This document shows, in pieces, positions 1,060-25,961 of a stretch of 64,000 bases of DNA. This DNA comes from Salinispira pacifica (GTDB lineage: Bacteria > Spirochaetota > Spirochaetia > DSM-27196 > Salinispiraceae), in NCBI RefSeq assembly GCF_000507245.1, contig NC_023035.1, positions 633,001 through 697,000 on the forward strand, read 5' to 3'. Below the pieces are notes generated by a model, which had not been told where the DNA came from, did no database searches, and saw only the letters and a list, made by a program, of their open reading frames with translations. How positions within the stretch are numbered: the stretch's first letter is position 1; each line of letters begins with the position of its first letter. A program made the position numbers and the translations under genes.

Positions 1060-1100
1060 AAAGTTAGGTAAATCTAACTCTGAAATAAGAAATTAGTCAA
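1060..1100 (-). promoter_or_regulatory. DtxR-type iron box overlapping the promoter of the flavin reductase
   Basis: On the minus strand TTGACT (1100-1095) and TTAGAT (1077-1072) form a promoter with a 17-base spacer. The palindrome GTTAG (1063-1067), six bases, CTAAC (1074-1078) overlaps the -10 hexamer, so a bound repressor would block RNA polymerase. The TTAG-N6-CTAA layout equals the core arms of the classical DtxR/IdeR box. Six further copies occur in the first 26 kb. Confidence 0.75.
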
Positions 1101-1218
1101 TAAAATTAGTCGGAAATATGGTAAAATCGGCTTCGCCGACACGACGATGACTTATTCCAAGTTAGCGCATTCTCGAAGTTCCCGTACGAATCAACAATGT
1201 CGCGCTGTATGAGCGCGA

Positions 1219-1284: not shown

Positions 1285-1295
1285 GGAGGAAAGGT

Positions 1296-2090
1296 ATGAC
1301 CGAAGAATTTGGGCGACCCATTGATGGTAATATAGAGGTCGCATCCGGTCACTGGGTTCTCGCCTCGCTGGGTAAGAAGGTACTGCGCCCGGGCGGTATC
1401 AAGCTTTCCAGAACCATGCTGCGCTTGCTCTCTATCGACGGGCGGGACGATGTCGTCGAGTTCGCGCCGGGACTGGGGGCAACTGCACGGCATACGCTTG
1501 GCTATTCACCTCGCTCATATACCGGAGTCGATAAAACCCCTGAAGTGGTTGAAATCATTAACCGGGAGTTCGATCATCCCCGGTACATCTGCGTCGAGGC
1601 GGATGCATCAAACACCGGCCTCGAGGATGAATCCGCCTCGGTTTTGTACGCAGAGGCGATGCTGACGATCCAAACCGATACGCAGAAGCTCGCCATCATG
1701 AAAGAGGCTGCCCGTTGTCTTCGAACCGGTGGGCGATTCGCGATACACGAAATATACCTATGCGACGATCAACCGAATGAAATCGCCGATGCGGTCCGCT
1801 CGGCCCTTACGGGTCAGGTCAGGCACCCGGTAAGGCCCGTTCGCATCGGCGAATGGAGGCTCCTCCTGGAGGAAGCGGGTTTTAGGGTGCGTGAGATCCG
1901 CAAAAAGCGGATGAAACTCCTCCAGCCCCTCCGAGTCATTTCCGATGAGGGTTTATTGCCTGCGATCCGCTTTTTCACGAGGGCGATGAAAAATCCCGCG
2001 GCACGGAAACGGGTCTCGGCGATGAGATCGGCGTTTCAGACACATCATCGTCATATGGGCGCTGTGCTCTTCATCTGTGAAAAGTTGTAA
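1296..2090 (+). CDS. Class I SAM-dependent methyltransferase
   Basis: The 264-residue protein has a Rossmann-type SAM-binding motif I, VVEFAPGLGAT at residues 53-63, followed by the acidic post-I residue D79, as in the Methyltransf_11/UbiE-like group. The start at 1296 is chosen for its strong AAGGAGG site; a longer frame from 1197 would begin inside the promoter. It is the first gene of an operon with a binding protein (overlapping ATG/TAA region), permease and ATPase, all downstream of an iron box. The acceptor molecule is unknown. A role in modifying or detoxifying the compound imported by the linked transporter is a guess. Confidence 0.75.
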   Translation: MTEEFGRPIDGNIEVASGHWVLASLGKKVLRPGGIKLSRTMLRLLSIDGRDDVVEFAPGLGATARHTLGYSPRSYTGVDKTPEVVEIINREFDHPRYICVEADASNTGLEDESASVLYAEAMLTIQTDTQKLAIMKEAARCLRTGGRFAIHEIYLCDDQPNEIADAVRSALTGQVRHPVRPVRIGEWRLLLEEAGFRVREIRKKRMKLLQPLRVISDEGLLPAIRFFTRAMKNPAARKRVSAMRSAFQTHHRHMGAVLFICEKL

Positions 2091-8449: not shown

Positions 8450-8494
8450 AAAGTTAGCTGAGGCTAACTATAACATGTAAGCACAAATAGTCAA
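8450..8494 (-). promoter_or_regulatory. Promoter and DtxR-type box of the putative manganese/iron exporter
   Basis: On the minus strand TTGACT (8494-8489) and TATAGT (8472-8467) form a promoter with a 16-base spacer. The box GTTAG (8453-8457), six bases, CTAAC (8464-8468) starts at the -10 hexamer and extends downstream. An additional half-site CTAACTTT lies at 8428-8435, between the box and the start codon. The position predicts repression rather than activation. Confidence 0.72.
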
Positions 8495-9607: not shown

Positions 9608-9634
9608 AATCTTCTCCACTTTTTGAATGCTATG

Positions 9635-11302: not shown

Positions 11303-12339
11303 AATTTCACTCCCGTGCGATACAGGAGGTAAAGGAAGTATGGCGCTCCCAGCGCCGAGGTGATGATACCCGCGGGCAGCTCGAAGGGAAGCAGGTGAAG
11401 GGTGATCATATCCGCCCCGAGTACCAGGATGCCCCCCAGCGCCATGCTGAGGAACCAGACGGAAGACCGGATCGGTCCGGCGATCATCCGAGCCAGATGG
11501 GGCACCATAAGCGCAACGAAGCCGATCGGGCCGGTAGCCGATACGGCTACGGCGGCGAGGCCGCAGCTGATCAGGAGCAGTCCGAACCTGACGGTTTCGA
11601 GACGGACCCCCACTGCCTTGGCCTGGGAGTCACCGAGCTGAATTACCCGGAGGGGATGAAGTAACATACTCCCGAGGGGAACGAGCAGCGCCATGCTGAT
11701 CGCCAGGATAGCCACGTCGTCCCAGCCGCTGTCGTAGAGGCTGCCGGCCAGCCATTGATATGCCCGGGCTATATCTTCGCTGCGCCCCACCAGGGTCATG
11801 TACGTAGTGAGAGCGCCGAAAATCGCATTCACCCCGATGCCGACGAGAACCAGCCGCGGTATGGATATATGCCCTTTCCAGGTCAGGCCATAGATAATCA
11901 ATGCCGCGGCCAGTGCGCCGGCGAATGCCGCGGGAGCGACGAGATAGGTCGGGATCCGATAGACATAGAGGAGGATCGCCATCAGTCCCGCGCCGGCGTT
12001 GATGCCGATGATGTCGGGGGAGACCAGCGGGTTCCGGACAATGCCCTGCAACAACATCCCCGACCCCGCCAATGCCCCTCCGACCAGAAGTGCCGTCAGG
12101 AGCCTAGGCAGGCGGATTTCCATAACGACCAGTGTAGAACGGGCGTCGCCGAGTCCCCTGAAAACCTCCAGGATTTCTGCCGGACTCAACGTATAAGCTC
12201 CCGTTATCAGCGCGATGCTGCCCAGGCCAAGCGCCAGGGCTAATGCGATGAGAACGAAGGACACCCGTCGGGGATGCCAGCGCAGGGATACGGGGCCGAT
12301 TTCCAGATGTTTATGCGGCTCTCGCGTATGCTTCATCAT
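11299..12339 (-). CDS. FecCD-family permease (second permease of the siderophore importer)
   Basis: The 346-residue membrane protein has about ten hydrophobic helices and FecCD hallmarks: LRLPRLLTALLVGGALAGSG after helix 1, RNPLVSPDIIGINAGAG, and GPIGFVALMVPHLAR near the ATPase-coupling loop. Its start (ATG 12339) overlaps the stop of the preceding permease by 4 bases (ATGA), so translation is coupled. The frame is open much further upstream but there it only mirrors the first permease. Together with the 12336-13384 permease it would form the membrane channel. Confidence 0.85.
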   Translation of the reverse strand: MMKHTREPHKHLEIGPVSLRWHPRRVSFVLIALALALGLGSIALITGAYTLSPAEILEVFRGLGDARSTLVVMEIRLPRLLTALLVGGALAGSGMLLQGIVRNPLVSPDIIGINAGAGLMAILLYVYRIPTYLVAPAAFAGALAAALIIYGLTWKGHISIPRLVLVGIGVNAIFGALTTYMTLVGRSEDIARAYQWLAGSLYDSGWDDVAILAISMALLVPLGSMLLHPLRVIQLGDSQAKAVGVRLETVRFGLLLISCGLAAVAVSATGPIGFVALMVPHLARMIAGPIRSSVWFLSMALGGILVLGADMITLHLLPFELPAGIITSALGAPYFLYLLYRTGVKL

Positions 12340-13384
12340 AATCCCGCCAGTTTCCTGCGCCTGGCCAGGACGATCAGGAAGGGTGCGCCGATGAGGGCCG
12401 TCACGATGCCCACCGGAATTTCGCCCGGTCGGGCGGCGATCCTTCCGAGGATGTCTGCGCCTATCAGAACCGCCGGTCCGGCCAGGATGGAAAAGAACAG
12501 TATCCGGCGATAATCCGGACCGGTGAAACTCCTGATTATGTGAGGTACCGCCAATCCGACGAATGCAATGGGTCCCGCCGCGGACACCGCCGAACCGCTG
12601 AGGAGGACCACCAGGATTGCGGTTATTCCCTTCACCCTGGAGGTGTTCATTCCCAGGACCATGGCCGTCTCGTTTCCGAGGGCGAGCACGTTGAGCTGAT
12701 GCCCCAGAAGAAGGAGGCCAGTGCTCGCGAGGAATACGAAGGGAAAGAGGCTGAAGAATACCTCCATATCCCGTCCCGAAAGCGATCCCGCCATCCAGAA
12801 CCGGACGATCTCCAGGGTTTGCTGGTCGAGGATGAGTATGGCAGTGGTCCATGCGCCGATCAGTGATGAAACGATGACCCCTGCCAGCGCAAGTTTGGCC
12901 GGTGATGCTCCCGCCCGCCCGGAGGAGGCGATTATGAACACCAGGGCCGATACCGACAGTCCGCCAGCGAAGGCGAACCACACGTAATGTATCGGCCGGG
13001 TAATGCCCCAGAGGTAGATCGCGATCACCACGGCAAACGCCGCTCCGGCGTTCACCCCGAAGATCGACGGGCCTGCCAGGGGGTTGCGGGTTACCGCCTG
13101 CATTGCCGAACCGGCGACGGCGAGGGCTGCGCCGGCCATGGCCGCCACCAGGGTGCGGGGGATCCTTAAGGTGCGAATGACGATCTGTTCGTAGACATCG
13201 GGATCATAGGAGAAAATCGCGTCCATCATCTGCCCGGTACTGACTGCCAGGGTTCCAAGCCGGAGGCTTGCCATGATCAGGAGCAGAAGAAGACCGAGGA
13301 GCGAAAGCCAGTATAAGAAAATAAGCGGTGAAATCCCCCGGGCCCTCGTTCCCGCCGAGTCCGGGGCATGGTAGCGCTTGTCAT
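12336..13384 (-). CDS. FecCD-family permease (first permease of the siderophore importer), apparent frameshift near the N-terminus
   Basis: The intact frame 12336-13274 (312 residues) contains the FecCD motifs LRIPRTLVAAMAGAALAVAG, RNPLAGPSIFGVNAG and GPIAFVGLAVPHIIR. Its first ATG (13274) falls in the middle of transmembrane helix 1. Upstream codons in the same frame encode the missing half of that helix (LIFLYWLSLLGLLLLLI) but contain no ATG, GTG or TTG. A separate frame starts at ATG 13384, 12 bases after a GGAGG site. One extra G in the G5 run (minus-strand view of 13335-13339) would join the two into a normal protein of about 350 residues. This may be a sequencing error, a slippage site or a recent mutation. 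An iron box lies upstream. Confidence 0.72.
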
Positions 13385-13425
13385 GACTTGAATGATCCTC
13401 CCGGAATATTCCGAATGCAACCCTG

Positions 13426-13447
13426 AAAGTTAGTGGATGCTAACAAT
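13426..13447. promoter_or_regulatory. DtxR-type iron box between divergent siderophore-transport genes
   Basis: GTTAG (13429-13433), six bases, CTAAC (13440-13444), with the AAAGTTAG left arm shared by the other boxes. It lies in the 101-base gap between the permease start at 13384 (minus) and the binding protein start at 13486 (plus), so one site can control both directions. Confidence 0.75.
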
Positions 13448-13485
13448 CTTGATTAGACTACCAACGTATAGTAAAATCCCGATTT

Positions 13486-14442
13486 ATGGAAGTCATCGAT
13501 ACCAAACGAACGGCGAGCGTAATAGCCGTCTTGCTGATAGTGTCAACTGCGCTTTTCGCCTCCGCCGGCTCCGAATCGACCGTCGGCGGACTCGACACCA
13601 TTCCCCAGAGGATCATTGCCCTCGATCCTTTTACCTTCGAGGCAATGGTCGCTCTGGAAGCGCCGATTATCGCGACATCAAGGATTTACATCGAGGAATT
13701 TCTTCAGAAATTTCCCGAATACGAGGAGCAGCTTCAATCGGTAGTTCGTCTGGAGCTCCCCGCCGATCCCGAAATACTGCTGTCTCTCGAGCCCGACGCG
13801 ATTCTCGGGCGTCGCACCGCCATCGAAGGATCCCTCAGGCGCTTGTCGAGAATTGCCCCTACAGTGGTTTTTGCTAATGAATCGAGCGCAGACTGGCAGG
13901 AAAGCGCGGCGTTTTTCGCCGCTGCCATCGGGATGACGACGGAGTTCGATCTCCTGGATTCCCGCTTTCGGGACCGTCTAGCGCTTCTGCAAATCGATCT
14001 GCGTCGGCGCTACGGCGATGACTTGCCAACGGTCTCGCTCCTTCGGATTATGCCCGGCCGATTGCGCCTTTATTTCACCAAATCCTTCGCCGGAATCGTT
14101 ATAGACGGAGCCGGCTTGAGCCATCCGGATCATCAGCAGGAACTGATCGATCGTTCAGGCCGCGGCGCATCGCTGTATAACCTGTCCCTGGAGGAACTCC
14201 GTTTGGCGGACGCAGATTACGTATTCGCCTATACCACCGAAGGTCTGGGCGATGACGAGGCGCAGAGGTATCTGAATGAAGTCCGGGAACAGAGCCTCTG
14301 GGCGAGCCTTGATGCCGTTAAAAACAACCGGGTGTTTATCGTGGAGAATAATTGGTTTGCCGCCGGATATATCGCTGCCGATGCGATAATCGACGATCTG
14401 TATCAACACATACTCGACACAGGCGCATCGGCTCTGCCATGA
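13486..14442 (+). CDS. Iron-siderophore/haem-type ABC substrate-binding protein
   Basis: The 318-residue secreted protein has a signal segment (residues 9-26, ending FASAGSE) followed by type III binding-protein features: PQRIIALDPFTFEAMVAL, a LLSLEPDAILG segment, LSRIAPTVVF and a closing region with VKNNRVFIVENNWF. It is transcribed divergently from the permease/double-ATPase/binding-protein operon, which already has its own binding protein, and shares the intergenic iron box. It may deliver a second ligand to the same permeases. No clear ribosome-binding site precedes the ATG at 13486, so the exact start is less certain. Confidence 0.8.
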   Translation: MEVIDTKRTASVIAVLLIVSTALFASAGSESTVGGLDTIPQRIIALDPFTFEAMVALEAPIIATSRIYIEEFLQKFPEYEEQLQSVVRLELPADPEILLSLEPDAILGRRTAIEGSLRRLSRIAPTVVFANESSADWQESAAFFAAAIGMTTEFDLLDSRFRDRLALLQIDLRRRYGDDLPTVSLLRIMPGRLRLYFTKSFAGIVIDGAGLSHPDHQQELIDRSGRGASLYNLSLEELRLADADYVFAYTTEGLGDDEAQRYLNEVREQSLWASLDAVKNNRVFIVENNWFAAGYIAADAIIDDLYQHILDTGASALP

Positions 14443-14491
14443 TCGACGTGGGAGAAATCGTTAGGATCCATACGCGCAAGCGATAGCAGTT

Positions 14492-14520
14492 TTGAATCGC
14501 GGCGTGTATTGCTGTATGCT
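14492..14520 (+). promoter_or_regulatory. Probable promoter of the DtxR-family regulator gene
   Basis: TTGAAT (14492-14497) and TATGCT (14515-14520) are separated by 17 bases. A CAGGAG ribosome-binding site precedes the ATG at 14583. No GTTAG-N6-CTAAC box is found here, so the regulator seems not to be under its own control through this motif. Confidence 0.45.
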
Positions 14521-14582
14521 ACAATAAAAGAGTTGGCTCGTCCGGACCCCGGGTTGTACGAGCTCTCAGGAGAATACGCATT

Positions 14583-14969
14583 ATGACCGAATACAGCGAA
14601 TCACTGGAAATGTATCTGGAAACCATACTCGATTTGTCAGTGGATGGAGACGAGGTTTACTCTGTCGATGTGGCAAAAAAGCTCAAAGTATCAAAGCCAA
14701 GCGTGAATCGCGCGCTTGGCATACTTAAGAATGATGGTATGATCAATCACGAACACTATGGAAGCATCAGCCTCACAAAGCAAGGTCTGGCGCTTGCCGA
14801 AGATGTGAGGCTTCGCCATGATTCTATCAAGGCATTCCTGATCTGTTCCCTTAACCTGGATCCCGCTCTGGCGGAAAAAGACGCATGCCGCATGGAGCAT
14901 ATTCTTTCCCCAGGAACCCTCGAGGCTATTAAAGATTTCGTCAAATCCCATACCAAAGAACCGACGTAA
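14583..14969 (+). CDS. DtxR/MntR-family metal-dependent transcriptional regulator (iron type, short form)
   Basis: The 128-residue protein has an N-terminal winged helix-turn-helix (recognition region SKPSVNRALGILK, residues 37-49) and the helical dimerisation/metal domain. It lacks the C-terminal SH3-like domain of DtxR and IdeR, as MntR does. The ligands fall on the DtxR numbering: M10, C102, E105 and H106 of the primary site and H79 of the ancillary site. The other ancillary positions differ (K83, E98). A cysteine at 102 rather than glutamate is the DtxR/IdeR pattern and points to Fe2+. Seven TTAG-N6-CTAA boxes around it are the obvious targets, making it the probable local iron regulator. 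Confidence 0.88.
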   Translation: MTEYSESLEMYLETILDLSVDGDEVYSVDVAKKLKVSKPSVNRALGILKNDGMINHEHYGSISLTKQGLALAEDVRLRHDSIKAFLICSLNLDPALAEKDACRMEHILSPGTLEAIKDFVKSHTKEPT

Positions 14970-15153
14970 ATATATGGTAGACTAAAGAACCGCCCAAGAC
15001 TACTTGAATGCGGGCTTAAAGAAAAGCATAGAGCTGGTGGAGAGAACTTTAGCCAGATACCATTGAACGAGTAATCTCAGTCCTCCATTATCATAACTCC
15101 TCGAATCTACAGTCATTAATAAAGACGGAGACTAATACGGGTTAATTCTTTCG

Positions 15154-15203
15154 TTGACAGTCTTATACCCTTCTTGCTAAGATAGTTAAGCGTGGCTAAC
15201 TTA
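15154..15203 (+). promoter_or_regulatory. Promoter and DtxR-type box of the YbtPQ/IrtAB-like operon
   Basis: TTGACA (15154-15159) and TAAGAT (15178-15183) form the promoter (18-base spacer). The box GTTAA (15185-15189), six bases, CTAAC (15196-15200) lies immediately downstream, over the expected transcription start. It has one mismatch in the left arm. The gap 14970-15153 before it shows no gene. Confidence 0.7.
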
Positions 15204-15240
15204 GTCCCCGCAACCTACCGGGAATAGAGAGGAGGCTGTA

Positions 15241-17064
15241 GTGGCCGATGTATCGATATATGAACAGAAATTGCAGCTAAAACGGAAGACGGGCATTCCA
15301 CGTCTGCTGGAAATTGCCGGAACGAAGTCGATCCTGTTGATTTTTGCCAGTCTGCTGGCGGTCGTTGCGGTTCTTGCGCAGATAACGCCGTTCCTGACGG
15401 TGTTTCTTCTCGTGCAGGAACTCATCGGGAACATCGGCAACTTGAAAGCCATAGACCAATCATATGTATGGAGCTTGGCCTGGTTTACCTTGGGTGGGGT
15501 AGCAGTCTCGGGAATCATGCTGTATGCAGGGGGAATGCTCTCTCATATCGCCGCGTTCAACATTCTGTATGAAATCCGGGTTGCCCTGGCGGGCAAACTG
15601 GCCCGGCTTCCTATGGGGTTTTTCACACGGAATGCCAGCGGTCGGGTAAAAAAAGTGCTCAGTGAGGATGTGGAGCGCATTGAGCTGTTTGTGGCCCATC
15701 ACATCCTGGACATTCTTCAGGCTGCCGTCCTCCCTGTCGTCTCCATCACCGCCCTTTTTGTTTTGGACTGGCGCCTGGGCCTGGGAGCAGTAATCCCCGT
15801 CCCCTTGGCGTTGCTCGCTCAGTATTCCATGATGAATGAAAGCGGCCTTGCTCTCTATAAGCAGTGGCAGGAGAAGCTTTCTTCCATGAACGGAACAATT
15901 GTGGAATACGTCCGGGGGATGCCGGTCGTAAAGGTATTCAATCAAACCGTCGGGGCGTTCAAGCGCTTTGCTGCCGATGTCTATGCCTACCGTGACCTCA
16001 CCCTCCATTGGATCAAGGTATCGTCAACACCTTTTGGTGGCTTTATTACGCTCTTAAGTTCCAGCGCGCTGTTTATCACGCCCATCGCGATTTTCCTGAT
16101 CCGCGCGGTACCCGAGGATGGCTATGCCTCCCTGATCACCACGGTATTTCTGTTCCTCTTTATTTCCATGGGAATTGCCGTGCCGATGTACAAGCTGATG
16201 ACCCTGGTTCCTCTGCTGATTCAGGTCTCCACGGGACTTGCAAGTATCGATGATATTCTCGATGAAAAGGAAATCGCAGATACCCAATCAAAGCAATCCC
16301 TGCAAGATGCAGAAATCAAATTTAAAGACGTGGTATTCGCCTATGAGCAGAAGCCGGTTCTCAACGGAGTATCCTTCACGGTGCATCCGGGTACGGTAAC
16401 CGCTCTCGTCGGTCCCTCAGGCGGAGGGAAAACTACCATTGCCAACCTTATTGGAAGGTTCTGGGATGTGAAGACCGGCTCGGTCACCATCGGGGGAATG
16501 GATATCCGTGATATGGCCATCGAACAGCTCAACGAAACGGTCTCCACAGTTTTCCAGGACGTATTCCTGTTTTTCGACACCATCGAGGAGAATATCCGGA
16601 TGGGCAATGCGGAAGCTTCATTCGCCGACGTTCAGGCGGCTGCCAAGGCCGCGCAGATTCACGAGTTCATCGAATCGCTACCCGACGGCTACCAGACACT
16701 TATCGGAGAGGGAGGAACCTATCTCTCCGGCGGAGAGCAGCAGAGGGTTTCTATTGCCCGGGCGATTCTCAAGGACGCACCCGTGGTGGTCCTCGATGAA
16801 GCCACCGCGTATGCCGACCCGGAAAACGAAGCGCGTATTCAAGCAGCCCTTGCCGAGGTGCTTCGGAACAAAACGGTGGTGATAATAGCCCACCGACTGT
16901 ACACCATCACCGATGTGGACCAGATTCTCGTTATCAATAACGGCCGAATCGAAGAATCCGGGACCCATGGAGAGCTGCTGGCCGAATCTGGGCTCTACAA
17001 GCGGATGTGGGATGTCCACGCGGCAGCTCGCAACTGGAATATCGATACGGAGGAAAAGAAATGA
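15241..17064 (+). CDS. ABC half-transporter, YbtP/IrtA-like, first subunit
   Basis: The 607-residue protein starts at a GTG with GAGGAGG upstream. It has an N-terminal exporter-type membrane domain with six helices (about residues 20-310) and a C-terminal ATPase: GPSGGGKTT, VFQDVFLFF, LSGGEQQRVSIARAIL, VVLDEATAYADPENE and an H-loop IAHRL. The DEATAYADPENE variant is typical of YbtP/YbtQ and IrtA/IrtB, exporter-fold proteins that import ferric siderophores. It is joined to the second subunit by an ATGA overlap. The iron box in its promoter supports a function in iron uptake. Export of a metallophore cannot be ruled out. Confidence 0.8.
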   Translation: MADVSIYEQKLQLKRKTGIPRLLEIAGTKSILLIFASLLAVVAVLAQITPFLTVFLLVQELIGNIGNLKAIDQSYVWSLAWFTLGGVAVSGIMLYAGGMLSHIAAFNILYEIRVALAGKLARLPMGFFTRNASGRVKKVLSEDVERIELFVAHHILDILQAAVLPVVSITALFVLDWRLGLGAVIPVPLALLAQYSMMNESGLALYKQWQEKLSSMNGTIVEYVRGMPVVKVFNQTVGAFKRFAADVYAYRDLTLHWIKVSSTPFGGFITLLSSSALFITPIAIFLIRAVPEDGYASLITTVFLFLFISMGIAVPMYKLMTLVPLLIQVSTGLASIDDILDEKEIADTQSKQSLQDAEIKFKDVVFAYEQKPVLNGVSFTVHPGTVTALVGPSGGGKTTIANLIGRFWDVKTGSVTIGGMDIRDMAIEQLNETVSTVFQDVFLFFDTIEENIRMGNAEASFADVQAAAKAAQIHEFIESLPDGYQTLIGEGGTYLSGGEQQRVSIARAILKDAPVVVLDEATAYADPENEARIQAALAEVLRNKTVVIIAHRLYTITDVDQILVINNGRIEESGTHGELLAESGLYKRMWDVHAAARNWNIDTEEKK

Positions 17065-18851
17065 ATGACGCGCTTCGGACCATGACCAATAACAATCCCG
17101 GGATACTTCGAAAGCCCATACTTTTTTCCTTGCTTCGGGCATTTATGCAGGGGCAGCCGTATTTCGTCATTCTGATGGTTATGCTCGAGCTCTTAAATCC
17201 CCTCTTAACCCCCGGTCTTTCTGTAAACTACTTCCGGCTCTGGCTCTATGTCGGCTGGCTCGCTGCAGCTCTTCTGCTGTTATTCCTGTTTTCCCGGGTC
17301 GCCTATGCCGCAGAGTCTTCGATGGCATACAGCGTAGGGGCAGAGGGACGGCTTTCATTGGGAGATCATCTGCGCACCCTTTCCATGGGATTCTTCAAGG
17401 GTCGGGATCCCGGAGATATCACCGCGTTAATGCTCCAGGACTACACCAACGTGGAAATGCTGCTTAGCCATATCCTCCTGGATGCTATCAGCGCATTGAT
17501 GCTCCCGGCGGTCTTCCTCATTGCCCTGATTCCTTATGACTGGCGGATGGCGCTCATTACCCTTGTGCCGATCCCCTTGGCAATTGTGACCGCGATTCTG
17601 GCCCGGGTGGTCGTTTACCGAAAAGGGGCCGAGCAGATCGCCTCAAAGAATGCGGCGAGTTCCCGGATGCTCGAGTACCTTGACGGTATGAAAAACATTA
17701 AATCCCATAATCTCCAGGGGAAGAAGTTCACCAGGCTCAAGGCATCGTTTGAGCGGCTTCGCAAGGACAGCATCGTCCTGGAGGGGATAGCAGGTCCCGC
17801 AGTGATTATCGGGGTCTGGTTCTTGAATGCCGGTATCGCCCTCATCATGATCTCGGGTATCTCCTTCCTGCTCCAGGGAACGCTTTCGGTACCGGTGTTC
17901 CTCTTTTTCCTCATCATCGGCACGCGAATGTACGACCCCCTGAGCCGGGTGATGATCAGTTTCGCCGAAATGAGCTATTTTTCGGTTTCCCTGGGCCGGA
18001 TAACGGAAATCCTCAAGACCAAGGCCTTGGCGGAACCCGAAACCTCGGAAGAACTTCTTCAGCACGATATTGAATTTGAAAACGTATCGTTCCGGTATCA
18101 CGATACCGATGTATTGCAGGATGTGAGCTTCCGCCTCGAAGAAAACAGCATGACTGCGCTGGTAGGCCCTTCAGGATCGGGGAAAACCACCATTACCCGG
18201 CTCATTGCCCGCTTCTGGGACGTGAATCAGGGGGCCATCAAGATCGGCGGAAAACCCATCGCCAGCTACGCCAGCGACGAATTATTATCAAAAATCAGCA
18301 TGGTGTTTCAGGATGTGTATCTCTTTAATGACTCCATCCTGGCGAACATCAAGGTGGGCAAGGCCGATGCAACCATGGATGAGGTTATCGCCGCAGCAAA
18401 AAAAGCCCGTTGTCATGAGTTCATCGAAGCCTTTGATGACGGTTATGACACCATGGTCGGGGAGGGCGGCGCGACGCTTTCCGGGGGAGAGAAACAGCGC
18501 ATCTCCATCGCCCGGGCCATTCTCAAAAATGCCCCCATCGTGTTGCTCGACGAAGCTACGGCGTCCCTCGATCCTGAAAACGAACACTATATTCAGGACG
18601 CTATCGGCGAATTGATTCGGGGCCGGACGCTTATTGTGATCGCACACCGTTTGAGTACGGTGACCAAAGCGGACCAGATCCTCGTCCTGGAAAACAGCAC
18701 ACTCATTCAAAACGGCACCCACGAAGAATTGCTGAGCGAGGTGAACGGCCTGTATGCCCGGATGTGGCACGAGCAGGAAAAAGCCCATTCATGGAAACTG
18801 GGGACCAACAACGGTTCGAGAACCGCCGCCGTTGGCTCGATTAGGCAGTAG
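17061..18851 (+). CDS. ABC half-transporter, YbtQ/IrtB-like, second subunit
   Basis: The 596-residue protein (start 17061, with GGAGG 8 bases upstream; a longer frame from 17007 lies inside the first subunit) has six hydrophobic helices, then GPSGSGKTT, VFQDVYLFN, LSGGEKQRISIARAIL, LLDEATASLDPENE and IAHRL. Both ATPase sites of the pair look catalytically complete. It overlaps the first subunit by 4 bases, so the two should form an obligate heterodimer. The C-terminal tail after residue 570 is polar and unusual. Just behind it lies a remnant of an ECF S component, a gene often found beside such ABC pairs in Firmicutes. Confidence 0.8.
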   Translation: MNDALRTMTNNNPGILRKPILFSLLRAFMQGQPYFVILMVMLELLNPLLTPGLSVNYFRLWLYVGWLAAALLLLFLFSRVAYAAESSMAYSVGAEGRLSLGDHLRTLSMGFFKGRDPGDITALMLQDYTNVEMLLSHILLDAISALMLPAVFLIALIPYDWRMALITLVPIPLAIVTAILARVVVYRKGAEQIASKNAASSRMLEYLDGMKNIKSHNLQGKKFTRLKASFERLRKDSIVLEGIAGPAVIIGVWFLNAGIALIMISGISFLLQGTLSVPVFLFFLIIGTRMYDPLSRVMISFAEMSYFSVSLGRITEILKTKALAEPETSEELLQHDIEFENVSFRYHDTDVLQDVSFRLEENSMTALVGPSGSGKTTITRLIARFWDVNQGAIKIGGKPIASYASDELLSKISMVFQDVYLFNDSILANIKVGKADATMDEVIAAAKKARCHEFIEAFDDGYDTMVGEGGATLSGGEKQRISIARAILKNAPIVLLDEATASLDPENEHYIQDAIGELIRGRTLIVIAHRLSTVTKADQILVLENSTLIQNGTHEELLSEVNGLYARMWHEQEKAHSWKLGTNNGSRTAAVGSIRQ

Positions 18852-18877: not shown

Positions 18878-19117
18878 ATGCGGGCACTGACGATTACATC
18901 GGGATATGATGCGGAATATGTCGACGGAATCCTTGCACTCATCAGAGCGCTTGATTTGGCCATTCTGGTTATTACCACCATCGTGGGCGCAGTGCTCAGT
19001 TCATTTATCGTCCGCAGCATGGTAGATAAGCATTTTGTGAGTCGATTGGGCCTCATTCATTGTCAATATCCGGGGCTGCATCTTCGGAGTTGCGGATCTC
19101 CCTCTGAATCCCGTTAA
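18878..19117 (+). pseudogene. C-terminal remnant of an MptD-type ECF transporter S component
   Basis: A 79-codon frame whose first 60 residues hold one hydrophobic helix (LDLAILVITTIVGAVLSSFI) followed by RSMVDKHFVSRLGL. This resembles the last helix and the KKHFEKAGI-like end of MptD/trep_Strep-family S components, which are normally about 200 residues. The N-terminal helices are absent and an in-frame stop lies at 18842. The final 19 codons overlap the convergent DUF438 gene and are probably not meaningful. A true T component and a truncated A component lie 7-9 kb away on the other strand, which suggests a rearranged ECF system. Confidence 0.45.
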
Positions 19118-20882
19118 TAAAATCTTCGAGGTTCAACCCACCCCGTTCTGCTATCATCCCAAGGGTTGCCATCGACGACATCGTTTTGAACAGGATTGGA
19201 TTTTTAAGCTTTTTGAATTTCGGCGTGAGGCTGATCAAATAATCTTTGACCAATGGATGCGCAGCAAGCAGTTCAGAGAGTCTGGTATCGGCAGACAGTT
19301 CTCCGGGGTTCCCCGCAGTACGTGCTCCGGCAGGCTCATCGACGGTATCTGCGATTGTACCCGCCCCAGCTGATTCATTATCCCAATTCAATAGCCTCTG
19401 AGTACCGCTCAGGCTGCGGATCCGCGTTACATCCTGCATCATTTCCAGAGTTCCCCGGTACGCACCGTTTTCATCCCTGACAGCGGTGTACAGGATGTAT
19501 AAAAACTTTCCCCCCAGCTCCAGCCAGAATTCCGCTGTTGAATGGGTACCCGCTTTAAATGCTTTGAGGATCCGTTCCACGGTATCCACGCTTTCACGTG
19601 GATGGCAATTTTGCACCGCGCGCCCGATCACACCCGGGCTCCGGGGAAAGACCCGCTCTGTTGTATCGCTGTAAAAACGGACGATATCGTTTTCATCAAC
19701 AAAGGAAAAATCGACGGGCATATGCCGATACATCAGATTAATCTGCTCCAGGGTGAGTTTTCCCCTGCTGACATCCAGCTCTCCCCGCTTATCATCAGCG
19801 ATTCCCACTCCGTGCCGCTGAAGTATCGCCGCGAGATCTGCAGCCAGACTCATGCTTTCGGCGGAGGTGCTGACTGATGAATAAGGCAGGGATTCTGACT
19901 GGGCGGTAATCTGCGGCCCCGGAGGAGGGGTGCTGATCAGTGCATATCCGATTTCTTCGTCGCTGCTCCTCATCATTAAAAACTCCTTTTCAGAGATGAG
20001 TTTCAGTGATGTCGGATACAATACTTCCCGTTCCTTATCGATGATGTCACGGACGAGTTCAATCACCTGATCCTGGTGCTCGAGAAATTCCGCCTGTTTT
20101 TCGCTGTCCAGTAGTATCCGCCCTTTTTTAATGCTGTCCCGCACGCCGTTGTCGAATGTCCACATGATCCGCGATGGCCGGTCGAAGCCCTTCTGTTCCA
20201 ATAGCGGGAAGAGCTGATTTTGCTTGCGGGCGAAATGGGTGTTTATTGTTTCAAGTTTTTCGTACACGATGAGCCAGGGGTTGATAATGAATTTACCCGA
20301 GCGTAACGCTTCCATGCTCTCTAACAGGCTTTCGAACTCCTGGCATTCATCGAGATAGGCTTTGATCGGATGCCAGTCAGGTAGTCGCTCTTCGTGGTGT
20401 CTGAGAAACGGTTTAAAAAGCCGGATGATATCATCCATTTTTTCGGTAATGACATCGTCATCCACCCCCTCGGATTTGAGCTTCTGCTCGGCATAAGCGA
20501 ATTCATCGACGGAAATTTCCGTAAACTCTCTGTGAAGTTCGTCTCTGGCGCTTTCCATGGAGATATACCCCGATACAAATTGCCGTTTGATGTTCATGAT
20601 CGTCTCGATCCGGTCCATATCCAGCTCGAGGTGAGAATCCATGCTCCTACTTTCAGCTGGACGGTAGAACCAGGTATGAAATTCATCCGCGGATATTTCG
20701 ATGCAGTGATGATCGAAACCCAAATTCTCCATGAACGGGTACAAGGGGGTCGGCTCGAATTCCTTGATCAGCAGCAGTCCTTCGTGTTCGTCCAGACCAA
20801 GCACGGTATTCCGCAACCGGTTATGGAATCCCACATCCTCATCCCGGCCGTCCATTTTCGTGTATTGGATATCGTTTCTCAT
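19053..20882 (-). CDS. DUF2249-DUF438-hemerythrin-PAS-DUF1858 sensor-like protein
   Basis: This 609-residue soluble protein is recognised by its domain order. A DUF2249-like start (about 20-75) is followed by a DUF438 region (about 85-170), a helical region with spaced histidines and glutamates fitting a hemerythrin-type di-iron bundle (about 165-320; HPIKAYLDECQEFE, THFARKQNQLFPLLEQKG), a PAS domain (about 375-490, DFSFVDENDIVRFYSD) and a C-terminal DUF1858-like segment (about 525-585). There is no kinase or output domain, so it may act through protein contacts. An iron box lies 43 bases upstream of its ATG, which places this oxygen/nitric-oxide- or iron-sensing type of protein inside the iron regulon. 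The function is not known. Confidence 0.78.
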   Translation of the reverse strand: MRNDIQYTKMDGRDEDVGFHNRLRNTVLGLDEHEGLLLIKEFEPTPLYPFMENLGFDHHCIEISADEFHTWFYRPAESRSMDSHLELDMDRIETIMNIKRQFVSGYISMESARDELHREFTEISVDEFAYAEQKLKSEGVDDDVITEKMDDIIRLFKPFLRHHEERLPDWHPIKAYLDECQEFESLLESMEALRSGKFIINPWLIVYEKLETINTHFARKQNQLFPLLEQKGFDRPSRIMWTFDNGVRDSIKKGRILLDSEKQAEFLEHQDQVIELVRDIIDKEREVLYPTSLKLISEKEFLMMRSSDEEIGYALISTPPPGPQITAQSESLPYSSVSTSAESMSLAADLAAILQRHGVGIADDKRGELDVSRGKLTLEQINLMYRHMPVDFSFVDENDIVRFYSDTTERVFPRSPGVIGRAVQNCHPRESVDTVERILKAFKAGTHSTAEFWLELGGKFLYILYTAVRDENGAYRGTLEMMQDVTRIRSLSGTQRLLNWDNESAGAGTIADTVDEPAGARTAGNPGELSADTRLSELLAAHPLVKDYLISLTPKFKKLKNPILFKTMSSMATLGMIAERGGLNLEDFINGIQREIRNSEDAAPDIDNE

Positions 20883-20921: not shown

Positions 20922-20955
20922 AAAGTTAGGCTATGCTAACGGTAACATATGTTAC
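20922..20955 (-). promoter_or_regulatory. DtxR-type iron box plus adjacent 14-bp perfect palindrome
   Basis: The box GTTAG (20925-20929), six bases, CTAAC (20936-20940) precedes the DUF438 gene on the minus strand. One base further lies the perfect palindrome GTAACATATGTTAC (20942-20955), possibly a second regulator's operator. No clear -35/-10 pair was identified. Confidence 0.6.
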
Positions 20956-21025: not shown

Positions 21026-22057
21026 CTATTTCATCTGGAGAATCTGGTTGTACAGGTTCTCCAATTCGTCAACGATGCGAGGCGTGGGACGAAGAATTAG
21101 CGAGGACGGAATAATCGCCAGGTTGCCATGGAGACCGGCAGTGGTCCGCTCTATAACCGGATCGGCATTCATGATGTCCTCTGCACTGGTAATGGACATT
21201 GCGCCGAAAATAAAATCTGGATTCTCCGCAAGAATATACTCGGAGCTGAGAATGGGGGATTCACCAATTACGCCGTCAGCGATGTTTTCCACACCGATGC
21301 GCTTCAGGATTTCCCCTGCCAGGGTATCGGAGTCGAAGGCCATGATGGGTCCCACAGAATAGATAAAAGCACCTTTTAGCTCAAGGGGAGATGCGCTGAG
21401 GCGATTGGAAATCTCATTGAGCGCCTCAACTTTTTCCATCAGCAGATCCACGGATTTATCAACTCGATCGCTAAACAGGCCGAGCACCAAGGTGTTGTTC
21501 AAGATCGCAGAAATGGTATCTGGGCCGTGAATAAGAGCGGGTATTCCCATCTGTGCCAATTGCCCAACCAGATCGGCATTCATGCCATTCAGTAGTACCA
21601 GGTCCGGTTCGAGGGCTACAATCTGTTCGAAATTGGGCCGTGCCAGACTGCCGACGCTTGGGAGCTTTTGGGTATGATCTTCAGGCCAGATACCCGATCT
21701 CGAGGTTCCGATGCCGGCAATTGCTTCTTCACCGTTGATCAGGTAGAGGGCTTCAACCGCTCCGGCGGAGGTTATCACCACCCGATCATAGGCTCGCAGG
21801 TCAACTTTGTTGCCCATATGGTCACTGACGAACCAGGATCCGTCCAGCTCGCTGATTATCCAGGAACCTTCCGCCGAATCTCCCAACCAGTTATCATGAA
21901 TGGTTTCCACCGGCGAAACCGCCGGTATTTCTCCCACGGTCGGCTCAGTCAGCTCCGTTTCGTGGGAGGTTTCTCCAGCTCCTCCGGCAAATAGCGGAAA
22001 TACTATTGTAAAGGCCAGCATTAGCAGGCCGACGACCCGTACATTATTGTTGATCAT
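21026..22057 (-). CDS. Haem/siderophore-type ABC substrate-binding protein (HmuT-like)
   Basis: The 343-residue secreted protein has a leader ending PLFAGGAGE, a spirochaete-style signal. The type III binding-protein pattern follows: AYDRVVITSAGAVEALYLI, PSVGSLARPNFEQIVALEPDLVLL and SSEYILAENPDFIFGA. It is the last gene of the five-gene operon flavodoxin-permease-ATPase-radical SAM-binding protein, 33 bases behind the radical SAM gene. The company of a HutW-like enzyme and a flavodoxin makes haem the most likely ligand; this is contextual inference. Confidence 0.78.
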   Translation of the reverse strand: MINNNVRVVGLLMLAFTIVFPLFAGGAGETSHETELTEPTVGEIPAVSPVETIHDNWLGDSAEGSWIISELDGSWFVSDHMGNKVDLRAYDRVVITSAGAVEALYLINGEEAIAGIGTSRSGIWPEDHTQKLPSVGSLARPNFEQIVALEPDLVLLNGMNADLVGQLAQMGIPALIHGPDTISAILNNTLVLGLFSDRVDKSVDLLMEKVEALNEISNRLSASPLELKGAFIYSVGPIMAFDSDTLAGEILKRIGVENIADGVIGESPILSSEYILAENPDFIFGAMSITSAEDIMNADPVIERTTAGLHGNLAIIPSSLILRPTPRIVDELENLYNQILQMK

Positions 22058-22090
22058 TTCGTGATCCTCCTATCATTTTCGTGCGCATAC

Positions 22091-23416
22091 TCAATCCTGC
22101 GCTTCAATTACCCGTTCAATAAGATCTACTGCGAGATTGTTGCCCCAGAATACGCCGTCCGGGCTCAATCTGCGGGCCCCATCATCATCTGAGCGAGAAA
22201 GAAGCCCTGCTGATTCATACTCGGATAGAATGTTTTCTATAAACTCAAAGGACAGTCCGGAGAGAATCGATGCGATCTTTTCTGCATGGTAGTTTCCGAA
22301 TTGTAAAAGTCCAATGAGCAGATTGTATCGGTCCGCTTCCTGCTTCGGCGGGGAAATCATGGTTCGTTCAGCATCCATATGGTAGACCCGGTGGCCCATA
22401 ACGCGCCCTCCCGCACCGTTTCCCAGGGGCAGCAGGTCGCAATTTTGATACCTGATATCGATATAGCGGTACGAATCACGTCCCGGTTTGACAATTTTGG
22501 TAAGCTCTAACAGCTCATACCCCTGGGCGAGCATACTTTCGTAGAAGCGGTTGTGCATCTGGCGGTCGTACTCGTCGGTCTTTTCGAAAAGAAGTCGTCC
22601 CGAATCGATGTCGTTACTCAAGGTTGAACCGGGGTGAATCATAAGTGAATAGAAACTGATGCTGTCGATGTCTAATTCGCGGATATACTGAATATCTCGT
22701 TCCAGGTGTTCCTGGCTCTGACCGGGCCAGCTATAAATAAGATCAATTGCAACTGTCCCGTCGAACCGGCCCCGGATCGTTTCGAATTTTCTTCTCGCCC
22801 ACGCGCCGTCGCCGCTTCGCCCAAGCATTTTCCGGCCATTGTCGGTGAAGCTCTGAATTCCAATGCTTAGTCGGTTGACGCCACAGTCACTAAAAATCCT
22901 TAATTTTTCATCTGTTAAATTGTGTAGCGTGGATTCGACTGTCCACTCATGCCCCGGGGCCAGCTCAAGGCTCTTGCGAATCAGCGGATACAGTTGTGAA
23001 GTATCGTGATTTGAGAGCACCGAGGGGGTTCCGCCGCCGAAATAGAGCACATCGAAAGGCCGTGACCGTACATACGGGGTGTGAGAAATCGATGAAAAAA
23101 CCGTGTTCAGATGTCTGGCGTAGGCGTGCAGATTCTCTCCGGTGGATTGCTCGCGACGCATATTGCAGAAGCTACAGATTCGATCGCAGTAAGGGAGATG
23201 AAGATATAGCCCCCGCGGGTGATCTTCAGGAATCATGGCCAGCAGATCGGTAAATTGAAGACTGTTTGCCATTGCGGCTTTCATTTCCGTGCTCGACGAT
23301 TCCCGGGGCAAGGTACGGTTCGGGGGACCCCCGGATTTCCCCTGTTTATTCTCTAGCGCTTTGCTTACTGCGGCCTGGGTATCATGATGGCTTCGGAATC
23401 GACCATTCATTTTCAT
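22091..23416 (-). CDS. HutW/HmuW/ChuW-like radical SAM protein, probable anaerobic haem-degrading enzyme
   Basis: The 441-residue protein belongs to the HemN/HemW-like radical SAM group. The 4Fe-4S cluster cysteines are C77, C81 and C84 in YCDRICSFC, followed by the VLYFGGGTPS glycine motif and IGIQSF. In haem-uptake loci such proteins (ChuW, HutW, HmuW) open the haem ring without oxygen and release iron, using SAM and a flavodoxin or similar electron source. Here the gene overlaps the ATPase gene by 4 bases and a flavodoxin starts the operon, closely matching the Fusobacterium hmuF/U/V/W/T set known from the literature. The distinction from HemW (haem chaperone) or HemN rests on context. Confidence 0.8.
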   Translation of the reverse strand: MKMNGRFRSHHDTQAAVSKALENKQGKSGGPPNRTLPRESSSTEMKAAMANSLQFTDLLAMIPEDHPRGLYLHLPYCDRICSFCNMRREQSTGENLHAYARHLNTVFSSISHTPYVRSRPFDVLYFGGGTPSVLSNHDTSQLYPLIRKSLELAPGHEWTVESTLHNLTDEKLRIFSDCGVNRLSIGIQSFTDNGRKMLGRSGDGAWARRKFETIRGRFDGTVAIDLIYSWPGQSQEHLERDIQYIRELDIDSISFYSLMIHPGSTLSNDIDSGRLLFEKTDEYDRQMHNRFYESMLAQGYELLELTKIVKPGRDSYRYIDIRYQNCDLLPLGNGAGGRVMGHRVYHMDAERTMISPPKQEADRYNLLIGLLQFGNYHAEKIASILSGLSFEFIENILSEYESAGLLSRSDDDGARRLSPDGVFWGNNLAVDLIERVIEAQD

Positions 23417-24270
23417 GGGATTTCTCCTATCTTGACTCCGGGAACTGCCGCTGGTGTAGGTGGGGAGGCATTGGGGTTACACCGGTTCCTGCGGGGAAGA
23501 ACGAAGGGTATGCCGTTCTCATCCCGGCTGACATAGGCATCAATGCCATATACCGTGGCGATTACTTCAGCCGTCATGGTTTCCCCAGGAAGTCCGTTTC
23601 TGAAGACAACGCCCTCATGCATAAATACCACGCGATCGCAGAATGCTGCAGCGAGATTCAGATCATGAAGCACCGCGGCAACTGTGGTTCCATTGGCAGC
23701 GCGCTTTCGAACCAGCTCCATAATTTCCACCGAATGATGCATGTCCAGATTCGCCGTCGCCTCGTCGAGAAGAAGAATACCGCTTTCCTGGCAAAGGGCT
23801 CGGGCCAGCAGAACCTTCTGAAATTCTCCTCCAGAGAGGCAATGGCAGTGCCGGTCTGCGAACTTGACCAGATCCAGGGACTCCATTACTGCTTTTGCAA
23901 TCTGGTAATCATGGGCCGAGAATCCGGCCCAGCGGTTCGCAATATGAGGTATTCGCCCCAGGAGAACCATTTCCTTTACCTTCAGCGACTGGCCGCCCCC
24001 GGATTTCTGGGGGACCAGGCTCACTCGTTTGGCGATCTCCCCGCTCTTGATGTTGGTGTGGGGGATGCCGTCGTATGTGATTTCGCCTTGATCGGGTTTC
24101 AGGAAGAGCTGGATGTTCTTCAACAAGGTTGTTTTCCCCGAGCCGTTGGGCCCGAGGATGCCGAGTACCTGCCCGGGGCGAATGTCCAAATCGACGCCGT
24201 TGAGTATGTTTTTGTGATGATGGGTTTCTCCATCAGCATAGGCATAATGGAGTTTCGACGCAATCACCAT
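23413..24270 (-). CDS. Haem/siderophore-type ABC ATP-binding protein (HmuV-like)
   Basis: The 285-residue ATPase has Walker A GPNGSGKTT, signature CLSGGEFQKVLLARAL, Walker B ILLLDEATANLD and an H-loop (AVLHDLNLAA), typical of FecE/BtuD/HmuV ATPases. The start at 24270 shares a base with the permease stop (TGATG), and its own stop overlaps the radical SAM start, so the whole operon is translationally coupled. A longer frame upstream exists only because it overlaps the permease gene. The C-terminal 25 residues are proline-rich and family-atypical. Confidence 0.85.
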   Translation of the reverse strand: MVIASKLHYAYADGETHHHKNILNGVDLDIRPGQVLGILGPNGSGKTTLLKNIQLFLKPDQGEITYDGIPHTNIKSGEIAKRVSLVPQKSGGGQSLKVKEMVLLGRIPHIANRWAGFSAHDYQIAKAVMESLDLVKFADRHCHCLSGGEFQKVLLARALCQESGILLLDEATANLDMHHSVEIMELVRKRAANGTTVAAVLHDLNLAAAFCDRVVFMHEGVVFRNGLPGETMTAEVIATVYGIDAYVSRDENGIPFVLPRRNRCNPNASPPTPAAVPGVKIGEIP

Positions 24271-25367
24271 CACATAACCGCCCGATTTTGCTTGATAGCC
24301 AGATAAATAAAGACTGGTGCGCCGAAGAACGCTGTAACTGCGCCGATAGGAATTTCCACCGGCGCTAAGACCGTGCGGGCTGCGGTATCTGCCAGAAGGA
24401 GAAACAATCCTCCGGCCAGCGATGTCACCCCCAGGAGTTTGGTATTGCTGTAACCGACTACGAGGCGCATGGTATGGGGAATTATGAGGCCGACAAAACC
24501 GATCATCCCGCTGAAGGCAACGGAAAAGCTGACCACCAGGCAAGAGACAAGCAGCAATCGTTTTTTGAGTCGGCCGACATCGATTCCCAAAGAGTGGGCT
24601 TCCTCATCTCCGGTCATCAGCGCGTCCAACTCGTGTCGGTGGTAAAAAAAGTAGATTAGGGATGCAAGCAACGGGACGGTAAGCAAGGCGATCTTTAACC
24701 AACTTGCCCCTCCCAGGTAGCCCATGGTCCATACGATAATCCGGTAACTATCCTCCCCGATGGCATACATGGCAAAGCTGGTGAAAGCGCCAAGGAATGC
24801 AGATACTGCAACACCGATTATCAGGAGGCTGGTTATTCTGGTCTGCCCGCCATTCATCGCCAACCGGAATATCAGGAAGGTTGTCGAAACTGATACCACG
24901 AATGCGAATATGCCGTAGAAAATCGTCGGTAGGCCTAGAAGAAAGGCGGTAACGGCACCGGCGACAGCGGACGCGCTGATACCGATGATGTATGGATCTG
25001 CAAGAGGATTATGAAAAACCGCCTGGACAACGGTACCCGAGGATGAGAGCATCATACCGATGAGAATAGCCATGGCGATCCGCGGTAACCGAACGCTCCA
25101 AATAATTGTTGAGTAATATGCAGGCAGGTCAGAGGAACGACGCACCATGGTTTTCACTACATCGTTCATGGAAATCGAAACCGATCCGATGCCGGTGCTG
25201 ACCAACGCAATGAAGGCAATGGCGAGCGCGAGCATGAGAATCCCGCTTTTGCTGTCAACCCGAATTGCTTCAGAAAATTGCCGTCGCGGCCAGGAGAATA
25301 CCCGGATATTCCGGCGACCGCGTGCTTCAGAAACGGCTCTAATCTCCTCACTCATGCTGCCTGCCAT
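24270..25367 (-). CDS. FecCD-family haem/siderophore permease (HmuU-like)
   Basis: The 365-residue membrane protein has a cytoplasmic N-terminus of about 40 residues, then about ten helices with the FecCD motifs VRLPRIAMAILIGMMLSSSG, HNPLADPYIIGISASA and GMIGFVGLIIPHTMR. The start is either ATG 25367 or ATG 25355; both overlap the end of the flavodoxin gene (stop at 25348). As the only permease in this operon it would form a homodimeric channel, unlike the two-permease importer at 11.3-13.4 kb. Confidence 0.85.
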   Translation of the reverse strand: MAGSMSEEIRAVSEARGRRNIRVFSWPRRQFSEAIRVDSKSGILMLALAIAFIALVSTGIGSVSISMNDVVKTMVRRSSDLPAYYSTIIWSVRLPRIAMAILIGMMLSSSGTVVQAVFHNPLADPYIIGISASAVAGAVTAFLLGLPTIFYGIFAFVVSVSTTFLIFRLAMNGGQTRITSLLIIGVAVSAFLGAFTSFAMYAIGEDSYRIIVWTMGYLGGASWLKIALLTVPLLASLIYFFYHRHELDALMTGDEEAHSLGIDVGRLKKRLLLVSCLVVSFSVAFSGMIGFVGLIIPHTMRLVVGYSNTKLLGVTSLAGGLFLLLADTAARTVLAPVEIPIGAVTAFFGAPVFIYLAIKQNRAVM

Positions 25368-25881
25368 TGTTAAGGATTGGCGCGAGAATTTCTCTTACCG
25401 AAGTCAGGGCGTTTGCGCAATCATCTTCATTGGGATGACGTGCGGCTTCCTGGTGTCTCGCCATCCGCTCCTCGGTCATGGCATGGGGATGATCTGCAGG
25501 AAAATTTTTGAACATCTCAGTAAGCCGGGGATCGATTTTCCCCATACACAAAAATTCTCCGAGAAACTTGTTGTTGCGCTCAACCAGCTCACGGATCCTG
25601 GTGCGTACATCATCTGCATGGTTCGAATCGGGATAGGCCCCAAGGGTTCCGAAGACACCGATCTTTTTCCCGCGAATCGATTCAAGGACCTCAACGGCTT
25701 CGGCGTTTGCTGATCCTTTATCAACCCAGAAGCCCCATAGGATCCATGCATATCCTTCAGTATCAAATTCGTCGCTTGCGGATGCAATATCTGCATGGGG
25801 TGTCAACCCTCTATGGATTGCCTCGGCCACTGTTTTGGTGTTGCCGGTTTTGGATGAATAGATGATGAGCCCTTTGTGCAT
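25348..25881 (-). CDS. Flavodoxin-family protein (HmuF-like electron donor)
   Basis: The 177-residue protein starts with the flavodoxin FMN phosphate-binding loop SSKTGNTKTVAEAI (residues 9-22) and continues with WILWGFWVDKGSAN and GKKIGVFGTLGAYP, the flavin-ring contact regions. It is the first gene of the haem operon, with an AGGAGG ribosome-binding site and an iron box upstream. The likely job is to pass electrons to the radical SAM haem-degrading enzyme encoded three genes downstream, as HmuF does for HmuW. It may also be an iron-sparing replacement for ferredoxin. Confidence 0.82.
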   Translation of the reverse strand: MHKGLIIYSSKTGNTKTVAEAIHRGLTPHADIASASDEFDTEGYAWILWGFWVDKGSANAEAVEVLESIRGKKIGVFGTLGAYPDSNHADDVRTRIRELVERNNKFLGEFLCMGKIDPRLTEMFKNFPADHPHAMTEERMARHQEAARHPNEDDCANALTSVREILAPILNNGRQHE

Positions 25882-25921: not shown

Positions 25922-25961
25922 AAAGTTAGTCAACACTAACTATAGATTCAATGAGTGTCAA
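25922..25961 (-). promoter_or_regulatory. DtxR-type iron box and -35 element of the haem operon
   Basis: The box GTTAG (25925-25929), six bases, CTAAC (25936-25940) lies 44 bases upstream of the flavodoxin start. On the minus strand TTGACA (25961-25956) is a good -35; the -10 (TTAGTG, 25939-25934, or an overlapping TATAGT) falls inside or beside the box. Iron-loaded regulator would therefore occlude the promoter. Confidence 0.72.

What the first reader, a model, noticed from the sequence alone, without database searches (positions are those of the whole stretch)
21026..25881. A spirochaetal HmuF-U-V-W-T-like operon for anaerobic haem uptake and ring opening
Five translationally coupled genes encode flavodoxin, FecCD permease, ATPase, a radical SAM protein with C77-x3-C81-x2-C84 of the HemW/HutW/ChuW group and a binding protein, behind an iron box. 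This is the gene set that in Fusobacterium (hmu) and enterobacteria (chu) imports haem and frees its iron without oxygen. I do not know of its description in free-living spirochaetes.
Basis: partly seen in the sequence, partly recalled or inferred. Interest (0 to 1): 0.7.

Follow-up and report, generated by a model that had tools for sequence, protein, structure and literature searches.

The report
Anaerobic haem uptake operon in spirochaete
A free-living spirochaete from a salt-lake microbial mat carries the same set of genes that an oral bacterium uses to import haem and break it open without oxygen to get its iron; it is a convincing new member of a known system, notable because this organism makes no haem, has no cytochromes and lacks the usual outer-membrane haem receptor.

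Summary
The finding holds. Window 21026-25881 (- strand) encodes flavodoxin, FecCD permease, ATPase, radical SAM protein and binding protein, i.e. hmuF-U-V-W-T. The genome is exactly the size of Salinispira pacifica (3,782,798 bp), a free-living mat spirochaete. A maximum-likelihood tree puts the radical SAM protein inside the HmuW clade (100/100) with the Fusobacterium hmuTRUVWF enzyme. Placement with HemW-like proteins or with ChuW/HutW alone is rejected (AU p about 5e-5). The flavodoxin matches the haem-flavodoxin FldH (8g64; TM 0.84-0.87) and keeps its haem-ligand histidine. A relative with the same gene order continues the locus with ExbB-ExbD-TonB-receptor-HmuY, which points to haem as cargo. 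The "iron box" is a DtxR/IdeR-type half-site, GTTAG-N6-CTAAC; eight of nine genomic copies lie in one 34-kb iron island with FeoAB and a DtxR-family gene. Corrections: the fifth gene follows a 33-nt gap rather than overlapping, and Treponema denticola/pedis clusters were already reported (PMC10404700). New here: free-living spirochaetes (6 of 46 genomes of the order), no haem synthesis gene (ALAD), and no TonB-dependent receptor, so how haem crosses the outer membrane is open. Haem binding and catalysis remain untested.

The parts
25348..25881 (-). HmuF-like haem/FMN flavodoxin, 177 aa
   Evidence: Flavodoxin_3 E 6e-53; best PDB sequence hit 8g64 FldH E 3e-21; His134 ligand and A147/H150/P151/D155 (FldH numbering) conserved; AlphaFold model pLDDT 93.6, 8g64 top fold hit TM 0.84/0.87
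24270..25367 (-). HmuU-like FecCD permease, 365 aa (overlaps the flavodoxin stop by 20 nt)
   Evidence: FecCD E 2e-84; 51% identical to the F. vincentii permease
23413..24270 (-). HmuV-like ABC ATPase, 285 aa from the ATG in the TGATG overlap
   Evidence: ABC_tran E 6e-33; haem ABC ATPase model NF010068 226 bits, cut-off 261; overlap
22091..23416 (-). HmuW-like radical SAM anaerobilin synthase, 441 aa, C77-x3-C81-x2-C84, N-terminal RFRSHHD, C-terminal GVFWGNN
21026..22057 (-). HmuT-like periplasmic binding protein, 343 aa, hydrophobic leader, 33 nt after the radical SAM stop
   Evidence: Peripla_BP_2 E 1e-21; 38% identical to F. vincentii HmuT; no ChuT-type Tyr ligand
25925..25940 (.). DtxR/IdeR-type operator GTTAGTCAACACTAAC, 44 nt upstream of the flavodoxin ATG
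20925..20940 (.). second copy of the operator, downstream of the operon and upstream of the next - strand gene (hemerythrin/PAS/DUF1858 protein 19053-20882)
14583..14969 (+). DtxR/MntR-family repressor, candidate (unproven) regulator of the operator
   Evidence: Fe_dep_repress and Fe_dep_repr_C over cut-off; MntR model 97 bits, cut-off 153
13429..13444 (.). operator copy before an iron-type binding protein (13486-14442 +) and the DtxR-family gene
8453..8468 (.). operator copy before the 7300-8403 (-) ArsP_2-type permease
1063..1078 (.). operator copy between 222-1061 (-) and 1197-2090 (+)

Best explanation
This is an hmuFUVWT operon for anaerobic use of haem iron. HmuT captures haem in the periplasm and HmuUV imports it. 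The HmuF-type flavodoxin binds haem against its FMN and hands it to the radical SAM enzyme. That enzyme methylates and opens the ring with SAM, releasing Fe2+ and an anaerobilin, which the reduced flavodoxin then reduces to a less reactive product. Iron starvation turns the operon on through a DtxR/IdeR-type repressor bound at GTTAG-N6-CTAAC. Shown here: genes, order, overlaps, family placement, conserved ligand and cofactor residues, shared operator. Inferred from F. nucleatum biochemistry and from family knowledge: haem as cargo, ring opening, anaerobilin reduction, direction of regulation. Since the organism lacks ALAD and cytochromes, imported haem is most likely an iron source rather than a cofactor supply.
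For: Radical SAM tree: HmuW clade 100/100 with F. vincentii HmuW, spirochaete subclade 99/96; alternatives rejected. Residues shared with HmuW and HutW/ChuW but not HemW-like proteins: F83, R195, Y318, G336, F423, W424. Failing TIGR04107's cut-off (226.6 of 400) is not evidence against, because F. vincentii HmuW itself scores only 213.2. Flavodoxin has the FldH fold and ligand. Neighbour genes: 14 of 16 close radical SAM relatives have the flavodoxin and 13 have FecCD and ATPase, against 0 of 64 more distant ones for flavodoxin or FecCD. Same-order relative L074/G302 has F-U-V-W-T-ExbB-ExbD-TonB-receptor-HmuY. Iron regulon with FeoAB, FecCD systems and a DtxR-family gene. No ALAD; no cytochromes (PMC4511686).
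Against: No haem binding or activity has been measured. No TonB-dependent receptor, TonB or HmuY is found anywhere in this genome, so the outer-membrane step is missing. The binding protein lacks the Tyr of the ChuT ligand region, but so does Fusobacterium HmuT. FecCD and ATPase models score as well for B12 as for haem transport. HmuW as sister of HutW/ChuW is only weakly supported (84/52).
Confidence: 0.88

Rival explanations
1. The transporter carries another iron or cobalt complex (siderophore or B12) and the radical SAM protein and flavodoxin act on that or on another tetrapyrrole, for example pigment breakdown products from the mat.
For: FecCD and ATPase models score as high for BtuC/BtuD and siderophore systems; the binding protein lacks the ChuT Tyr; no haem receptor in the genome.
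Against: Same gene set and homologous binding protein, permease and ATPase (38%, 51%, 37%) as Fusobacterium hmu; the flavodoxin keeps the haem-ligand His; HmuY next to the same operon in a relative.
Confidence: 0.08
2. The radical SAM protein is HemW or HemN, a haem chaperone or coproporphyrinogen oxidase, placed by chance beside an iron transporter.
For: Shares the HemN/HemW radical SAM core; 145.6 bits to the HemW model.
Against: Tree and AU test exclude it; a separate HemW-like gene exists at 3297658; ALAD is absent, so no coproporphyrinogen is made.
Confidence: 0.02
3. The flavodoxin is a BilS-type partner that reduces a bilin such as bilirubin, rather than HmuF.
For: Best NCBIfam model is BilS, 113 bits, cut-off 155.
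Against: F. vincentii HmuF also hits BilS first (97.8 bits), so the model does not separate the two; best solved structure is FldH; gene context is hmu.
Confidence: 0.02

Closest known systems
Fusobacterium nucleatum hmuTRUVWF (HmuW anaerobilin synthase, HmuF haem-flavodoxin; PMC10404700)
   Same: Binding protein, FecCD permease, ATPase, radical SAM and flavodoxin are all homologous (34-51% identity to F. vincentii); haem-ligand His and cap motif conserved.
   Different: Order F-U-V-W-T instead of T-R-U-V-W-F; no TonB receptor HmuR anywhere in the genome; DtxR-type operator; free-living host without haem synthesis.
Treponema denticola/pedis hmu cluster (reported in PMC10404700; G126, G019, G165 here are Treponema-like by my inference from class and genome size only)
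   Same: Spirochaete, same five gene families, no TonB receptor in G126/G019, operator of similar form upstream.
   Different: Separate branch grouping with Bacillota HmuW; radical SAM protein only 34% identical; distant binding protein (25%); gene order T-U-V-F-W.
E. coli chu / Vibrio hut (ChuW/HutW)
   Same: Radical SAM ring-opening enzyme; in chu also binding protein, permease and ATPase.
   Different: Uses ChuS/ChuX/HutX and ChuY, no flavodoxin gene in the locus; ChuW only 28% identical; has TonB receptor.
FldH (PDB 8g64)
   Same: Fold, FMN loop, helical cap, His134 ligand position.
   Different: 34% identity; FldH is monocistronic in F. nucleatum.

Membership tests
HmuW anaerobilin synthase | Phylogenetic placement with Fusobacterium HmuW, outside HemW/HemN | tested here: met
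   100/100 clade; AU test
HmuW anaerobilin synthase | CX3CX2C cluster motif and HmuW/HutW-specific residues | tested here: met
   C77/C81/C84; F83, R195, Y318, G336, F423, W424
HmuW anaerobilin synthase | Opens haem to anaerobilin with SAM and reductant | not testable with these tools
   Needs biochemistry
ChuW/HutW equivalog TIGR04107 | Score over the curated cut-off of 400 bits | tested here: not met
   226.6 bits; F. vincentii HmuW at 213.2 also fails, E. coli ChuW at 568.8 passes. Not filed as ChuW/HutW.
HmuF/FldH haem-flavodoxin | Helical cap and His134 haem ligand, A147/H150/P151/D155 | tested here: met
HmuF/FldH haem-flavodoxin | Binds FMN and haem, reduces anaerobilin | not testable with these tools
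   FMN loop residues conserved; binding not measured
hmu haem-uptake locus | Binding protein, permease, ATPase, radical SAM and flavodoxin together | tested here: met
hmu haem-uptake locus | TonB-dependent haem receptor (HmuR); present in Fusobacterium but not in all clusters | tested here: not met
   No Plug or TonB_C domain in the genome; also absent from G126/G019, present beside the operon in G292, G296, G302
ChuT/ShuT-type haem binding protein | Tyr haem ligand in the IGYWKQLS region | tested here: not met
   VGSLARPN here; Fusobacterium HmuT IGNVSNLN also lacks it
HemW / HemN | Placement in those clades | tested here: not met
DtxR/IdeR regulon | Operator of form TTAGGNNNNCCTAA before iron genes | tested here: met
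   Outer letters TTAG-N6-CTAA match, inner G/C vary
DtxR/IdeR regulon | Metal-dependent binding of a DtxR-family protein to the operator | not testable with these tools
   Four DtxR-family and two Fur-family genes exist

The most novel reading that the evidence does not exclude
In a free-living, cytochrome-free spirochaete that makes no haem, this operon mines haem or related iron tetrapyrroles from decaying mat organisms purely for iron, with an outer-membrane entry route that uses neither TonB nor a known receptor.
Probability: 0.35. Interest if true: 0.55.

Novelty: new member of a known kind. Interest (0 to 1): 0.42.

Why it matters
Anaerobic haem opening has been studied as a trait of oral and gut pathogens. 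Finding the full HmuF-HmuW set in a salt-mat spirochaete, with relatives in insect-gut-type Treponema, Halanaerobiales, Alkaliphilus and Propionigenium genomes, suggests it is a wider way for anaerobes to recycle haem iron. S. pacifica is a cultured test case in which imported haem has no obvious use except as iron, so the function can be tested directly by growth.

Tried and rejected
HemW/HemN identity rejected by tree and AU test. ChuW/HutW membership rejected by AU test and model score. BilS as the flavodoxin's identity: the Fusobacterium HmuF control shows that the BilS model hits HmuF proteins generally. Fur-type box rejected in favour of a DtxR/IdeR-type one; the genome does hold two Fur-family genes, so the cognate regulator is not proven. 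The sigma-70 promoter scan found nothing on the - strand at the operon start. None of the other 16 sampled HutW-like spirochaete proteins put in the tree has the transporter genes beside it; 14 of them fall with HemW-like proteins and two near HemN. Literature searches for free-living spirochaetes with HmuW/HutW gave nothing relevant, but subscription papers are not held.

Full report
Source. The window is part of a single 3,782,798-bp contig. This equals the published genome size of Salinispira pacifica L21-RPul-D2, a free-living, aerotolerant, strictly fermentative spirochaete from a hypersaline microbial mat with no cytochromes (PMC4511686).

Observation. Five - strand genes at 25881-21026 encode flavodoxin, FecCD permease, ABC ATPase, radical SAM protein and periplasmic binding protein. 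The first four overlap (20 nt, TGATG, ATGA). The fifth starts 33 nt downstream of the radical SAM stop. The ATPase is best started at the ATG inside TGATG (24270).

Radical SAM protein. NCBIfam ranks HutW/ChuW first (226.6 bits), then HemW (145.6), but below the 400-bit cut-off. The control matters: F. vincentii HmuW, from a locus with the published hmuTRUVWF order, scores 213.2, so the cut-off separates ChuW/HutW from HmuW and does not test function. In a tree of 62 proteins the query sits in a 22-row HmuW clade at 100/100, inside a spirochaete subclade at 99/96. Treponema-like sequences, of the kind reported for T. denticola, form a separate branch with Bacillota. The AU test rejects grouping the query with ChuW/HutW alone (p 5e-5) or with HemW-like proteins (p 4e-5). 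Residues F83, R195, Y318, G336, F423 and W424 are shared with HmuW and HutW/ChuW but not with HemW-like proteins. The organism's own HemW-like gene is elsewhere (3297658), and no ALAD was found.

Flavodoxin. The best solved relative is 8g64, the haem-bound FldH of F. nucleatum (E 3e-21). The FMN loop, the cap motif A147/H150/P151/D155 and the haem ligand His134 (FldH numbering) are all kept. An AlphaFold model (pLDDT 93.6) has 8g64 as top structural hit, E 6e-15, TM 0.84/0.87, far ahead of ordinary flavodoxins. The HmuF role (haem hand-over to HmuW and anaerobilin reduction) is taken from PMC10404700.

Transporter. Permease, ATPase and binding protein are 51, 37 and 38% identical to the Fusobacterium proteins. 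The binding protein lacks the Tyr of the ChuT ligand region, as does Fusobacterium HmuT, so the ligand is unknown. That ChuT/ShuT uses this Tyr is from my own knowledge.

Context elsewhere. Of 80 related loci, the 16 closest carry the flavodoxin in 14 and the permease and ATPase in 13; none of the other 64 has flavodoxin or permease. Gene order F-U-V-W-T recurs in L072, L073 and L074. In L074 (Spirochaetales PL24a_bin.20, apparently the same contig as G302:C148) the locus runs on with ExbB, ExbD, TonB, a TonB-dependent receptor whose best model is the haem/haemoglobin receptor family (below its cut-off), and a HmuY-family protein. G292 and G296 also have a receptor and TonB near the operon. 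This is the best cargo evidence short of biochemistry. S. pacifica and the Treponema-like genomes have no receptor or TonB and no HmuY. In the order, 6 of 46 genomes carry the radical SAM gene.

Regulation. GTTAG-N6-CTAAC occurs nine times in the genome, eight within 34 kb. Sites precede two FeoA genes, one followed by FeoB, iron-type ABC genes, a DtxR-family gene and this operon. The ninth precedes another FecCD system at 420916. The form fits the IdeR/DtxR half-site TTAGGNNNNCCTAA (PMC8464063) in its outer letters. Similar palindromes lie upstream of the first gene of the hmu operon in Treponema-like L052 and in G311. Which of four DtxR-family or two Fur-family proteins binds is not known.

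Mechanism. Import by HmuTUV, haem capture by HmuF, ring opening by HmuW with SAM, Fe2+ release, and anaerobilin reduction by HmuF; repressed when iron is plentiful. Gene content, family membership and operator are shown. Cargo, chemistry and regulation are inferred.

Novelty. T. denticola and T. pedis clusters were already noted (PMC10404700). I found no description in free-living spirochaetes in the library held; the word 'heme' does not occur in the genome paper. This is a new member of a known kind, interesting for its setting.

Noticed in passing
window 8618-18851: A second cluster of iron-type genes: binding protein, double ATPase, FecCD permease (-), then binding protein, DtxR-family gene and two ABC half-transporters of exporter fold (+), possibly IrtAB/YbtPQ-like siderophore importers.
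   Followed up: partly
L044 10873-11133 and 14382-16753 (genome 624873, 628382-630753): Two nearly identical FeoA-like genes with identical operators, one followed by FeoB.
   Followed up: partly
L044 12217-13092 (genome 626217-627092): A short radical SAM gene (291 aa) resembling the N-terminal part of a HydG/ThiH-type protein, perhaps truncated, next to an iron operator.
   Followed up: no
window 19053-20882: A hemerythrin-like/PAS/DUF1858 protein directly downstream of the operon under its own copy of the operator, a possible iron or oxygen sensor.
   Followed up: no
L044 46-8904: A CRISPR array and cas-like genes just upstream of the iron island.
   Followed up: no
L152 (NZ_CP084075.1) and L153 (NZ_CP141089.1): Whole-chromosome-sized records (2.1 and 4.9 Mb) filed as plasmids in PLSDB.
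   Followed up: no
L057 10501-11808: TonB and ExbD genes beside the hmu operon of a same-order relative; TonB and its receptors are absent from S. pacifica.
   Followed up: partly
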